Positions 41,201 through 47,523 of a stretch of DNA of 64,000 nucleotides are shown piece after piece. The DNA comes from Motilibacter rhizosphaerae. GTDB taxonomy: Bacteria; Actinomycetota; Actinomycetes; Motilibacterales; Motilibacteraceae. A program made the translations under genes and the position numbers. How positions within the stretch are numbered: position 1 is the stretch's first letter; each line of letters starts with the position of its first letter. The stretch covers positions 310,001 through 374,000 of the forward strand of contig NZ_SGXD01000001.1 of the NCBI RefSeq assembly GCF_004216915.1, read 5' to 3'. The notes beneath the pieces were generated by a model. That model was not told the origin of the DNA. It saw nothing but the letters and a program-made list of their open reading frames with translations, and did not search any database.

Positions 41201-42226
41201 ATGCCGACGACCGGACCGCTGGAGCAGCTGGGGTTCCTCACCATCGGGGTGTTCGACCCCGACGACCCGGCGCGCGGTCACGAGACGACGCTGCGGGTCA
41301 TCGAGCTCGGCGAGCAGCTCGGCTTCGACAGCGCCTGGCTGCGCCACCGCCACCTCCAGCACGGGATCTCCTCGCCCGTCGCCGTGCTCGCCGCCGCGTC
41401 GCAGCGCACCACCCGCATCGGGCTCGGCACCGCGGTGACGCCGCTCGGCTGGGAGAACCCGCTGCGGCTGGCCGAGGACCTTGCGACCGTCGACGTCCTC
41501 TCCGGCGGCCGGCTCAACCCCGGCCTCAGCGTCGGCACCCCGATGCGCTGGGACGACGTCAAGGACGCGCTCTACCCCGACACCGCGGAGGTCGAGGACT
41601 TCAGCCACGAGCGGGTCGCCCGGTTCCTCCGGCTCGTCGGCGGCGAGCCCGCGAGCGGCTTCGAGGGCACGCAGGGCTTCGAGGTGTTCTCCCGCCGCGT
41701 CCAGCCGCACTCACCGGGCCTCCGCGACCGGATCTGGTACGGCGCCGCCGGCACCCCCTCGGCCGTGTGGGCCGGCGAGAACAGCTTGTCACTGGTGACG
41801 TCCAGCGTGCTGCGCGCCGAGCCGGAGACCGGGCCGTGGGACTTCGCCGAGCTGCAGGCCGCGCAGATCAGGGCCTTCCGCGCCGCGCACCCCCTGGGCG
41901 ACGCCGCCAGGGTCTCGCAGGGGCTCGTCGTGATCCCCACCGACTCTGCTTCCCCTGCCCAGCAGGAGAAGTACGCCGCCTACGCCGCGGCGCGGACACC
42001 GCGTACGCGGGAGCCGCAGGGCCCGGGGCGCCTGCTCTTCGCCCGCGACCTCGTCGGGCCGGCCGAGCAGATCGCCGACGAGCTCCGCGCGCACGCGGGC
42101 TTCCGCGAGGTGCGCGAGGTCGCCTTCGCCCTGCCGTTCAGCTTCGAGGAGGAGGACTACGTCCAGATCCTCACTGACATCGCCACGCGGCTGGGCCCGG
42201 CGCTGGGGTGGAGCCCGAAGGACTAG
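41201..42226 (+). CDS. LLM-class flavin-dependent oxidoreductase
   Basis: A 341-aa luciferase-like barrel enzyme: [15 protein letters not shown]-terminal strand, [35 protein letters not shown] and [13 protein letters not shown] are typical of FMN-dependent LLM monooxygenases. ATG 41201. The substrate is unknown. It is convergent with the collagen-like gene and shares the bases CTAG with it so that both stops overlap. It is unrelated in subgroup to the two F420-type enzymes in the pyrimidine operon. Confidence 0.82.
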
Positions 42227-42882
42227 CTGCCAGGGCACTGCACCATCAGGGAGAACGGCGCGTTCACGTAGGCGCCAGTGATGCTCTGGGCGTCCACGAA
42301 GAACCCCTTCGGCTTCTGGTAGAGGCCCGCCACGCCGAGGACGGCCTCCGCCGGGGATCCCAGGAGCGCCGGGCTCGCCAGGCCGACCACGGGGATGCAG
42401 GTCGTGACGTCGAACGGGAACACGACGTCGTACTGGCCCTTGCCCTCGGCCACGACCGTGACCGGCACGGTGGAGCGGGCCACGACACCCGTCCCGTCGA
42501 CGATCACGGAGTAGACGTCGAGGGGCCCGGCCGGCCCTCGCGGACCGGTCGCGCCGGTCGCGCCGGTCGCGCCTGTCGCTCCCGTCGGGCCGGCCGGCCC
42601 CGTCGCCCCCGTCGCGCCCGCCGGCCCCTGCGGACCCGCTGGTCCCTGCGCGCCGGGCAGGCCCGGCTCGCCGGCCACCACCTGCGGGGGTGCACCGACG
42701 GCCATGTACGTCGCCCCCTTGGCGCACTTCCCGCGCACGGGCAGGACGAGGGCCCTAGTCGTCGCGACGGCACACACCGCGGACACGCGCGGAGTGGCCC
42801 TGGTCGCAGCGGCGGCCGCGCCGGCACCCGCGGAGAGGAGGACGAGGGACGTGGTGGCGGCCACTGCCGCGGTCAGGCGCAT
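42223..42882 (-). CDS. Secreted collagen-like protein
   Basis: A 219-aa exported protein. The signal peptide (to about residue 27, ...AGAGAAAAA) is followed by a short domain with two cysteines (CAVATT...GKCAKG), a collagen-like Gly-X-Y stretch of about 16 triplets (roughly residues 72-120, [10 protein letters not shown] type) and a C-terminal domain of about 100 residues of unknown fold. Such proteins form triple-helical stalks on the cell surface or in the matrix. ATG 42882. A second collagen-like gene lies 1.7 kb away. Confidence 0.8.
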
Positions 42883-44482: not shown

Positions 44483-44490
44483 GACGCCGA

Positions 44491-44521
44491 CGGGCCCGGC
44501 TCCGTGGAGGAGCCGGGCCCG
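44491..44521. terminator. Bidirectional terminator hairpin
   Basis: A perfect 13-bp stem CGGGCCCGGCTCC (44491-44503) / GGAGCCGGGCCCG (44509-44521) with a 5-nt loop. It lies 8 bp after the epimerase stop and 15 bp before the convergent collagen-like gene's stop, so it serves both transcripts. Confidence 0.85.
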
Positions 44522-44535
44522 ACGGGTGCGAGCAG

Positions 44536-45420
44536 CTACTTGATGGGGCTAGCCCCGTCCCACTTGACGTTCCTGATGGCGTCCCAGCCGTAGCCGTTCC
44601 CGCCGCCGGTGTACTTGAAGTACAGCCCGCCCATCTGGAACGTGACCGTCTCGTCGAGCCCACCGCTGCCGGCCGTGATCCGCTGCTCCGCGACAGCGAC
44701 CAGGCCCATGGTCACGACCAGCTGCACGTCGGTCGTGCCCGGCGCGTAGACCTCGAGCGTGCCCGACTGCCAGGGCGTGCCCGCGGCCTCGGCGGCGAAG
44801 GTGCCCGGCACGGTGCTCTCGGCCGGCAGCGTCAGCACGATCGGGCCGAGCTTGACCTTGCCGGCGCCTGCACCCGTGCTCTGCGACCCGAGGTTGAGGG
44901 TCTGGAGGCTGTCGAGGTCCACCGCGTGGACAGGGATCTTGACGCCGTCGAGGTTCCCGCCGCCGGCGTTGGCGCTCGAGTGGAGCGTCAGGGTGCCGAC
45001 GACGGTCTGCGCGGGGGTCGTGGGCCCCGTCGCGGGGACCGTCACCACCGCGCCGGGTGCGCCCGAGGGACCCGCCGGGCCCGAGGGGCCTGCCGGACCG
45101 GACGGGCCCGCAGGGCCGGAGGGGCCGGGAGCGCCGTCCGCACCGGGAGCGCCGGAGGCGCCGGGAGAGCCCGAGGGGCCGGGGTCGCCCTTGGGTCCGG
45201 TGACGTTCCACTGCGTCCGCGTCTCGTTGCTCTGGCAGGCCGTCGCCGCGTCGACGATGCGGACATCGCCCTTGCTCGTCTTGACGCAGGCGTAGATCAC
45301 CGAGGACGAGGAGCCGGTGTCGGCGTGCGCGACGAGCGCGCCGCTGACCGCGAGGACGCCGACGCTCACGAGGGCGACGGCGCCCCGGCGTACGGGGCGG
45401 GACGAGGGGAGAAGGGGCAT
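44536..45420 (-). CDS. Secreted collagen-like protein with Hcp-like C-terminal domain
   Basis: A 294-aa exported protein: signal peptide (to about residue 34, ALVAHA), a ~35-residue head with two cysteines, a collagen-like Gly-X-Y run of about 18 triplets (roughly 73-125, [10 protein letters not shown]), and a C-terminal domain of ~160 residues. Features such as [25 protein letters not shown] and [25 protein letters not shown] follow the strand order of Hcp (type VI tube) proteins. There is no T6SS here, so the domain would be a secreted Hcp-fold module. ATG 45420 follows GGAGG; function unknown. Confidence 0.72.
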
Positions 45421-45536
45421 CAGGACCTCCACGGCCGCTGGCGCTGCGAGCCGCCGTGGCCCGCGCCGAGCGGCACGCTAGCCCCGCACGCATCCTGACG
45501 TGGGCGAACTGCCCGATCTCCCCCCGACGGGGAGGG

Positions 45537-46515: not shown

Positions 46516-47523
46516 GTGGCAGGGATGATCCGCGCACGACGAGCAGGGTCCGCGGCCGTGGCGACGGCGGTGCTCGCCGTGCTGGTGCCGGCGGGCAGCG
46601 CGGGGGCGGCGACGCAGACCGTGCGCACGGCGGCGGCCGCGGTCCGGCCCGCCGTCGTCGACATCACGACCACGCTCGCCGGCGGCCAGGGCAGCGCCGC
46701 GGGCACCGGCATGGTGCTGAGCTCGTCCGGGCTGGTGCTGACCAACAACCATGTCATCGAGGGCGCGGCGACGATCAAGGCGCGCGACGTCGGCAACGGG
46801 CGGACCTACACCGCGACCGTCGTCGGCTACGACCGCACCGACGACGTGGCGGTGCTGCGGCTCACCGGCGCGAGCGGGCTGCGCACCATGCGGTTCTCCC
46901 GCACACCCGCGCGCCTCGGTCAGACCGTCGTCGCCGTGGGCAACGCGTACGGCCGGGGCGGGACCCCCGTCGCGGTCTCCGGCCGGGTCACCGCGCTGGG
47001 CCGCACCATCACCGCGAGCGACGAGGGGGTCGAGGAGGTGCTGCGCGGGGTCGTGCAGACCGACGCCGCGATCGTCCCCGGCGACTCGGGCGGCCCCCTC
47101 GTCAACCTCGCCGGGCAGGTGCTGGGCATGGACACCGCCGGCGGCAAGGGCCCCTCGGGCTCCGCGGGTTTCGCGGTCCCGATCGCGCGGGCCATGCTGA
47201 TCGAGGCGCAGATCGTCGCGGGCCGCTCGTCCGCCACCGTGCACGTCGGCCCGAGCGCGATGCTCGGCATCGGTGTGGTCGACGGCCGCCGGTCGGGCGC
47301 GCTCGTCCAGCAGGTCACCAAGGGCGGACCTGCTGCTGCTGCGGGCATCTCCGTCGGTGACACCGTCACGTGGGTCGCCGGCCACGCGGTCTCCGGCGTC
47401 GGCGCACTGGGGCGCATCATGTCCACGTTGTCGCCCGGGACGTCCGTGTCGGTGCGCTGGGTGGATGCCCACGGCAGCAGTCACTCCGCCCGTGCGACGC
47501 TCGCGGTGGGGGCTCCGCAGTAG
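46516..47523 (+). CDS. Secreted S1C (DegP/HtrA-type) serine protease with PDZ domain
   Basis: A 335-aa exported protease. A signal peptide (about residues 10-31) precedes a trypsin-like domain with catalytic His79 (TNNHVIEG), Asp110 (YDRTDDVAVL) and Ser191 (VPGDSGGPLV). A PDZ domain follows (LVQQVTKGGPAAAAGISVGD...). Such enzymes degrade or sense misfolded extracytoplasmic proteins. GTG 46516 is chosen for the GGGAGG site 7 nt upstream; ATG 46525 would also keep the signal peptide. Confidence 0.88.
   Translation: MAGMIRARRAGSAAVATAVLAVLVPAGSAGAATQTVRTAAAAVRPAVVDITTTLAGGQGSAAGTGMVLSSSGLVLTNNHVIEGAATIKARDVGNGRTYTATVVGYDRTDDVAVLRLTGASGLRTMRFSRTPARLGQTVVAVGNAYGRGGTPVAVSGRVTALGRTITASDEGVEEVLRGVVQTDAAIVPGDSGGPLVNLAGQVLGMDTAGGKGPSGSAGFAVPIARAMLIEAQIVAGRSSATVHVGPSAMLGIGVVDGRRSGALVQQVTKGGPAAAAGISVGDTVTWVAGHAVSGVGALGRIMSTLSPGTSVSVRWVDAHGSSHSARATLAVGAPQ

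What the first reader, a model, noticed from the sequence alone, without database searches (positions are those of the whole stretch)
44536..45420. Collagen-like stalk joined to an Hcp-like domain in a secreted protein
A signal peptide, ~18 Gly-X-Y triplets and a C-terminal domain with Hcp-type strand motifs ([10 protein letters not shown]..., [22 protein letters not shown]) occur together with no type VI genes. A trimeric collagen stalk presenting a ring-forming Hcp-fold on a Gram-positive surface would be a new arrangement. A second collagen-like secreted gene lies 1.7 kb away.
Basis: inference. Interest (0 to 1): 0.58.

Follow-up and report, generated by a model that had tools for sequence, protein, structure and literature searches.

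The report
Secreted collagen stalk with Hcp head
A bacterium in which no type VI injection-machine sheath was found appears to export a protein made of a short collagen rod capped by that machine's tube protein, and related bacteria seem to have built the same combination separately, so a weapon part may have been reused outside the cell.

Summary
Window 44536-45420 (-) encodes 294 aa: an apparent signal peptide, a conserved Cys module, 17 Gly-X-Y triplets (longest chance run 8 in 20,000 shuffles) and a C-terminal Hcp domain. A model from a 15-row alignment (pLDDT 80.9) matches T6SS Hcp best (Z 15.4; first non-T6SS tube protein 9.5). A 2-row model failed, but a profile of the window and its collagen-fused relative alone finds Hcp1 in the PDB at E 1.1e-4. 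VipB, the T6SS sheath, was found in 0 of 22 Hcp-carrying genomes, this one included.

It is not unique. Five further collagen-Hcp genes were found, one elsewhere in this genome and one, with the same head subfamily, in a Frankiales MAG. Six heads fall in three places on the tree; a single clade is rejected (p 1.2e-4). A T6SS gene of the same subfamily sits beside TssB/TssC in a Rhodospirillales MAG.

Best reading: a T6SS-type Hcp domain exapted as an extracellular head on a collagen stalk. Export, trimer, ring, location and function are inferred. No paper joining Hcp and collagen turned up in the listings seen.

The parts
44536..45420 (-). collagen-Hcp gene, 294 aa plus stop
   Evidence: GC3 and Shine-Dalgarno; Pfam
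45426..45430 (-). GGAGG ribosome-binding site, 5 bases before the ATG
   Evidence: sequence
45322..45420 (-). signal peptide, residues 1-33 (AHA|D)
   Evidence: read from the translation; no predictor run
45199..45300 (-). N-terminal module, residues 41-74, with Cys45 and Cys62
   Evidence: alignment of 6 collagen-Hcp proteins, invariant A, C, G, R, C, E, W, GP; a match in 38 of 296 genomes of the class
45046..45198 (-). collagen-like stalk, 17 Gly-X-Y triplets, residues 75-125
   Evidence: PF01391 39.4 bits; run count and shuffles
44560..45006 (-). Hcp-fold head, residues about 139-287
   Evidence: AF2 model, Foldseek, VIA-align, PDB profile search, hhalign
44854..44895 (-). [14 protein letters not shown], residues 176-189, in the region of the Hcp extended loop
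   Evidence: alignments A2 and A3; shared with L007 and L024, but the scan that fetched L023-L029 used this motif as a search pattern; loop role from PMC4650826 passages
44487..44525 (.). hairpin between the convergent genes, probable shared terminator
   Evidence: stretch 44485-44536 folds at -38.8 / -39.4 kcal/mol on the two strands
42223..42882 (-). second collagen-like protein with an apparent signal peptide, 219 aa, 17 triplets, other C-terminal part, no Hcp match

Best explanation
The gene makes a Sec-exported protein: signal peptide, small Cys module, 17-triplet collagen rod, and a C-terminal domain that is a T6SS-type Hcp (tail-tube) domain taken over for use outside the cell. Three chains would fold into a collagen rod, held in register by the Cys module, and carry three Hcp domains at the tip. 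The head still holds the loop motif of a T6SS Hcp, in the region through which Hcp rings contact one another, so heads of two trimers could pair into six-membered rings or short stacks. That would turn weak single contacts into a multivalent, cross-linking head that works as an adhesin or a matrix joint. Shown: sequence anatomy, Hcp kinship and fold, no sheath gene found, repeated fusion. Inferred: export, trimer, ring, cross-linking, location. I put the anatomy and the exaptation at about 0.93 and the cross-linking mechanism at about 0.30; the figure below is for the statement as a whole. The mechanism was 0.35 and the whole 0.50 before I noted that the scan which fetched L023-L029 had itself searched for the loop motif.
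For: Fold: pLDDT 80.9, pTM 0.77. The 50 Foldseek rows shown, of 913 matches, are T6SS/Hcp entries or fusions with Hcp1, except 4tv4, whose title says only 'uncharacterized'. Z 15.4 to 4w64_B, rmsd 2.7 over 145 residues; the first entry not from a T6SS or Hcp fusion by title, 4tv4 apart, is a PVC protein at 9.5. Without other Hcps: a window + L023 profile finds 1y12 (Hcp1) at E 1.1e-4, then four Hcp1 fusions; hhalign against four Hcps that score well with PF05638 gives probability 92.7. Kinship: window and L023 lie in a clade supported 100/100 and 100/99 with L024, an Hcp encoded directly after VipA and VipB with TssF further on. No sheath: VipB in 0 of 22 Hcp-carrying genomes, E. coli control positive. 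Repeated fusion: 6 collagen-Hcp rows need 3 changes on both trees; one clade rejected, p 6.5e-7 and 1.2e-4. Five of the six collagen-Hcp proteins pass Pfam's Hcp cut-off in a protein scan; the window's own falls 1 bit short. Loop: window and the T6SS gene L024 share [12 protein letters not shown]; L007, found by PF05638, has GSASGGAGAGKV. Mutation of this loop stopped ring stacking in one Hcp1 (PMC4650826, passages).
Against: The AF2 model leans on an alignment that holds Hcp relatives: with only window + L023 it fails (pLDDT 35.9), and part of the loop (model residues 48-53) is under 50 even in the good model. L023-L029 were fetched with patterns that include the loop motif, so its identity among them is partly selection. 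In L013 and L014, and by eye L001, the loop is shortened or changed (alignment), so ring stacking cannot be common to all. Collagen runs are short; in L013 and L014 they fall below Pfam's Collagen cut-off, 26.0 and 19.6 of 27.2. No surface anchor is visible. The fusion is rare: by PF05638, 4 of 393 class genomes and 1 of 396 phylum genomes, this genome included in both. A relative in G044, L061, is a short remnant, so the gene is dispensable there.
Confidence: 0.47

Rival explanations
1. The Hcp domain is only a C-terminal folding cap: it holds three chains together so that the collagen rod zips up, forms no ring, and binds nothing special. The Cys module does the real work.
For: N-module proteins carry many different C-terminal parts: of 30 loci read, 3 have Hcp, 2 a trypsin-type protease, the rest were not classified. 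Loop shortened or changed in several collagen-Hcp relatives.
Against: The window head keeps the loop motif of a T6SS Hcp (partly a search effect); two to three separate recruitments of the same fold suggest a property particular to Hcp.
Confidence: 0.27
2. The heads form a ring that holds a small secreted cargo protein in its lumen, as Hcp does for T6SS effectors, and present it outside the cell.
For: Hcp rings carry effectors of suitable size in the lumen (PMC8262886, passages).
Against: No obvious cargo gene among six neighbours scanned: luciferase-like enzyme, TetR, epimerase, SDR, trypsin/PDZ protease, NAD(P)H-binding protein. By eye the 4.6-kb L023 contig shows none of these neighbours.
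Confidence: 0.12
3. The gene serves a real contractile injection system (T6SS or eCIS) or a prophage tail.
For: The fold is that of tube proteins; collagen-like segments occur in many phage tail families (hits of the second collagen protein).
Against: No VipB, no sheath PF04984; enzyme and regulator neighbours; a signal peptide, which tube proteins lack (recalled). PF06841 also gave nothing, but its control rang nowhere, so that search counts for nothing.
Confidence: 0.03
4. Artefact: a chance Gly-rich reading frame in 75% GC DNA and a spurious Hcp hit.
For: GC-rich DNA yields long false frames here (L053 and L054 look like such frames).
Against: Shuffle control, GC3 and Shine-Dalgarno; L023 passes both Pfam cut-offs with the same architecture, as do L001 and L005.
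Confidence: 0.02

Closest known systems
T6SS tube protein Hcp (PF05638; Hcp1 PA0085 / 1y12, A. baumannii Hcp1 / 4w64)
   Same: Predicted beta-barrel fold, GAGAGK loop motif, terminal GW motif; profile match
   Different: Apparent signal peptide and collagen stalk in front; no sheath gene found in the genome; ring formation untested
Hcp of the Rhodospirillales T6SS locus (L024)
   Same: Relative of the head with a known setting, same supported clade, identical [12 protein letters not shown] stretch
   Different: Free-standing, beside TssB and TssC; by eye no signal peptide and no collagen
Secreted bacterial collagen-like proteins with a globular end (Scl1/Scl2, Lcl: NCBIfam hits far below cut-off; BclA recalled)
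   Same: Collagen rod plus a further domain, apparent signal peptide
   Different: No LPXTG anchor; the further domain is Hcp
N-module collagens of the same class (L074-L100)
   Same: Same Cys module, most with a collagen run
   Different: Other C-terminal parts, two with a trypsin-type protease
Hcp-repeat Cadherin or RTX proteins of Bradyrhizobium and Methylobacterium (L025, L026)
   Same: Hcp domains of the same clade in large modular proteins
   Different: Tandem Hcp repeats, no collagen; export not tested

Membership tests
T6SS Hcp (PF05638) | Hcp beta-barrel fold | tested here: met
   (predicted; depends on a 15-row alignment, the 2-row control failed)
T6SS Hcp (PF05638) | sequence score over Pfam's cut-off | tested here: inconclusive
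   window protein 22.5 of 23.5 bits, 24.2 in the genome scan; L023 40.1, met
T6SS Hcp (PF05638) | works in a T6SS: sheath gene in the same genome | tested here: not met
   VipB not found, E. coli control positive
T6SS Hcp (PF05638) | hexameric ring | not testable with these tools
   only monomer prediction offered
Bacterial collagen-like secreted protein | uninterrupted Gly-X-Y run, Pfam Collagen over cut-off | tested here: met
   17 triplets, 39.4 of 27.2 bits
Bacterial collagen-like secreted protein | signal peptide | tested here: inconclusive
   clear by reading; no predictor available
Bacterial collagen-like secreted protein | triple-helical trimer | not testable with these tools
   needs CD or light scattering
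Scl/LPXTG-anchored collagen-like adhesins | LPXTG anchor and equivalog score | tested here: not met
   no LPXTG; NCBIfam 31.7 of 325 and 27.5 of 400 bits
eCIS or phage tail tube | contractile sheath gene in the genome | tested here: not met
   PF04984 not found; control rang in 3 of 14 genomes

The most novel reading that the evidence does not exclude
Ring-forming injection-tube proteins have been recruited at least three times in Actinobacteria as heads of secreted collagen rods. In this genome two such proteins with heads of different origin (window gene and L001) join as three-plus-three mixed rings, a bacterial extracellular matrix made of collagen rods cross-linked by Hcp rings.
Probability: 0.12. 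Interest if true: 0.85.

Novelty: new variant of a known kind. Interest (0 to 1): 0.55.

Why it matters
Hcp is studied as the inner tube of a weapon of Gram-negative bacteria. Here its fold sits behind a signal peptide and a collagen rod in genomes where no T6SS sheath was found, and this seems to have arisen two or three times. That suggests the fold has a use of its own outside the cell. It also warns that an Hcp annotation in this phylum need not mean a type VI system: VipB was absent from all 22 Hcp-carrying genomes tested. If heads do ring up, the protein would be a natural model for self-assembling collagen networks, with three-fold rods joined at six-fold nodes.

Tried and rejected
T6SS or eCIS component: set aside because no sheath gene was found; other T6SS parts were not searched for, and the PF06841 search is worthless as evidence because its control rang nowhere. 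Phage origin: PHROGs gives only weak families of unknown function for the head (E 0.0065 and 0.011) and none for the L023 head; the six neighbours scanned are enzymes and a regulator. Defence system: no PADLOC hit for either collagen protein. Plasmid-borne relatives: none by tblastn for the whole protein or the L023 head. Single origin of all collagen-Hcp fusions: rejected with all 33 rows (p 6.5e-7) and with six long-branch rows left out (27 rows, p 1.2e-4); three smaller groupings were rejected too (p 1.6e-4 to 2.4e-4). End branches are long (median 1.11 and 0.96) and four long ones remained, so three changes may be overstated; two are safer. A 2-row structure control failed. The one genome-contig scan returned 7 loci from 152 candidate stretches, found with two peptide patterns, one of them the loop motif, so relatives are under-counted and the loop's conservation among them is overstated. 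Weak matches L069 and L070 have a stop inside and look like another tube family by eye. Literature: ten searches. Four combined Hcp with collagen terms: all terms required, 0 papers; 20 of 196 listed; 10 of 45 listed; 10 of 24 listed. Six were on neighbouring topics: 39, 50, 61, 62, 70, 87. Passages of PMC3482391, PMC4650826 and PMC8262886 and the abstract and outline of PMC5874247 were seen; the rest were listings. None seen linked Hcp with collagen, but the library is open-access only. The organism could not be named; 'actinobacterium' rests on GC content, kinship groups and L023, and is inference.

Full report
What is there. The minus-strand gene at 44536-45420 encodes 294 residues. It starts at an ATG with GGAGG five bases upstream and has GC3 of 0.96 in both its N-terminal and Hcp parts. 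Reading from the N terminus: a signal peptide ending AHA|D (by eye), a short module with Cys45 and Cys62, 17 Gly-X-Y triplets (residues 75-125), a linker, and a domain of about 150 residues. In 20,000 shuffles of the protein the longest run of Gly at every third place was 8. A strong hairpin (about -39 kcal/mol) lies between this gene and the convergent epimerase gene.

Is the head Hcp? By sequence the window domain alone is borderline: 22.5 bits against Pfam's 23.5, 24.2 in the genome scan, E 0.014 to Hcp1 1y12. Its relative L023 passes both Pfam cut-offs, Collagen 36.0/27.2 and Hcp 40.1/23.5. A profile built from only the window and L023 heads finds 8 PDB sequences at E up to 0.1: 1y12 at 1.1e-4, four Hcp1 fusion proteins, two chains of 7fcf (titled T6SS Hcp) and one tailspike at 0.039. 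hhalign against four Hcps from the survey gives probability 92.7. The AF2 model with 15 rows has pLDDT 80.9 and pTM 0.77. Foldseek's best hit is 4w64_B at E 1.6e-8. VIA-align gives Z 15.4 over 145 residues at 2.7 A; the first entry that is not T6SS or an Hcp fusion by title, apart from the uninformative 4tv4, is a PVC protein at 9.5. Against this, a control model from two rows failed (pLDDT 35.9), so the model owes its quality to the wider alignment, which includes a T6SS Hcp.

Where the head comes from. The only genome-contig scan gave 7 loci; its two peptide patterns included the loop motif. L023, a Frankiales MAG, has the same architecture as the window. L024, a Rhodospirillales MAG, has an Hcp of the same subfamily directly after VipA and VipB, with ImpA upstream and TssF further on, so it is a T6SS gene. 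L025 (Bradyrhizobium) and L026 (Methylobacterium) carry tandem Hcp domains with Big_9/Cadherin or RTX repeats, and L027 two Hcp domains with a Hint domain. L028 is a short open frame and L029 free-standing. A genome of the window's own genus has a free Hcp of this subfamily, L007, 32% identical to the window head.

How common is the arrangement? PF05638 is found in 7 of 60 relatives, 13 of 393 genomes of the class and 9 of 396 of the phylum, the window's genome included each time. These are 22 distinct genomes and 27 matches. By reading, 5 of the 27 are collagen-fused: the window, L001 in the same genome about 31 kb left of the window edge, L005, L013 and L014. Pfam agrees for Hcp in L001, L005, L013 and L014 (46.6 to 104.3 bits); Collagen passes its cut-off in L001 and L005 and falls short in L013 (26.0 of 27.2) and L014 (19.6). 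Six more look exported without collagen (by eye). With L023 that makes six collagen-Hcp genes in five genomes. A profile of the window subfamily finds 5 of 393 genomes, one of the L001 type 15 of 393, including L061, a short remnant. VipB was absent from all 22 Hcp-carrying genomes, 18 of them at least 90% complete with low contamination, while E. coli rang.

How many fusions? In a tree of 33 Hcp domains the six collagen-fused heads sit in three places: window + L023 (97/94) inside a 100/100 clade with L024; L001 + L013 + L014 (86/74); and L005. One clade is rejected (p 6.5e-7). Without six long-branch rows one clade is again rejected (27 rows, p 1.2e-4); L014 then leaves its group, and L005 stands in a separate 98/99 clade. 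End branches are long, so I claim at least two and probably three fusions or head swaps onto the same N-module and collagen rod.

The scaffold. The N-module is invariant at A, C, G, R, C, E, W and GP in the six collagen-Hcp proteins. It has 57 matches in 38 of 296 genomes of the class. Of 30 loci read, 24 hold seven or more overlapping Gly-X-Y stretches; 3 have Hcp heads, and two, L093 and L094, a Trypsin_2 protease with weak PDZ matches. The profile was seeded with the Hcp-headed proteins, so 3 of 30 is biased upward. The window genome has four other collagen-like proteins (L001, 42223-42882, L049, L050) and one with an apparent membrane segment and few triplets (L055); two more hits look like false frames.

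How it most likely works. Collagen needs three chains, so three Hcp heads should sit at one end of each rod (established knowledge). Hcp normally forms six-membered rings, and its extended loop makes contacts between rings; mutating two residues of that loop in one Hcp1 prevented stacking (PMC4650826, passages). The window head shares [12 protein letters not shown] with L024, though L024 was fetched with a pattern from this motif. The simplest mechanism is that heads of two trimers pair, or rings stack, joining rods into a multivalent network or adhesive head. This is inference; on noting the search bias I lowered it from 0.35 to 0.30 and the whole statement from 0.50 to 0.47. The loop is shortened in L013 and L014, so those may work differently. 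Rivals are a passive folding cap, a cargo ring (Hcp lumens hold effectors, PMC8262886, passages) and, least likely, an injection-system part.

Compared with the known. It is kin of T6SS Hcp by fold and sequence but fails the setting that defines a T6SS Hcp. It would work like a collagen-stalked secreted protein without the LPXTG anchor of the Scl family. Four full-text searches that combined Hcp with collagen terms and six on neighbouring topics listed no paper that joins the two; lists were capped and the library holds open-access papers only. I rate it a new variant of a known kind, with its interest in the repeated exaptation.

Noticed in passing
L026:1415-6598: Methylobacterium sp. Leaf125 protein with six tandem Hcp-fold domains followed by RTX repeats: a single chain that could form its own pseudo-hexameric ring.
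   Followed up: partly
L025:4764-7550: Bradyrhizobium protein with two pairs of Hcp domains around Big_9/Cadherin domains; the repeat units look near-identical within each pair.
   Followed up: partly
L017:8596-9375 (L001): Second collagen-Hcp gene in the same genome, with a head of a different Hcp subfamily, about 31 kb left of the window edge.
   Followed up: yes
L093, L094 and window 46525-47520: The N-module is fused to a trypsin-type protease in two genomes; in the window a separate trypsin/PDZ protease gene with an apparent signal peptide starts 1.1 kb from the collagen-Hcp gene.
   Followed up: partly
L003, L008: Hcp proteins with what read as twin-arginine leaders (RRDVLK, RRTVLK) in genomes where VipB was not found.
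   Followed up: partly
L016:8843-9352: In the same genus a small protein with a Tat-like leader and no Pfam match lies directly before the free Hcp gene L007.
   Followed up: no
L061 (G044): Short remnant of an L014-type gene: a leader-like start and the second half of the Hcp domain, no N-module or collagen.
   Followed up: partly
window 42223-42882: Second collagen-like protein with a degenerate Cys module and an unknown C-terminal part; L049 and L050 in the same genome carry a like module.
   Followed up: partly
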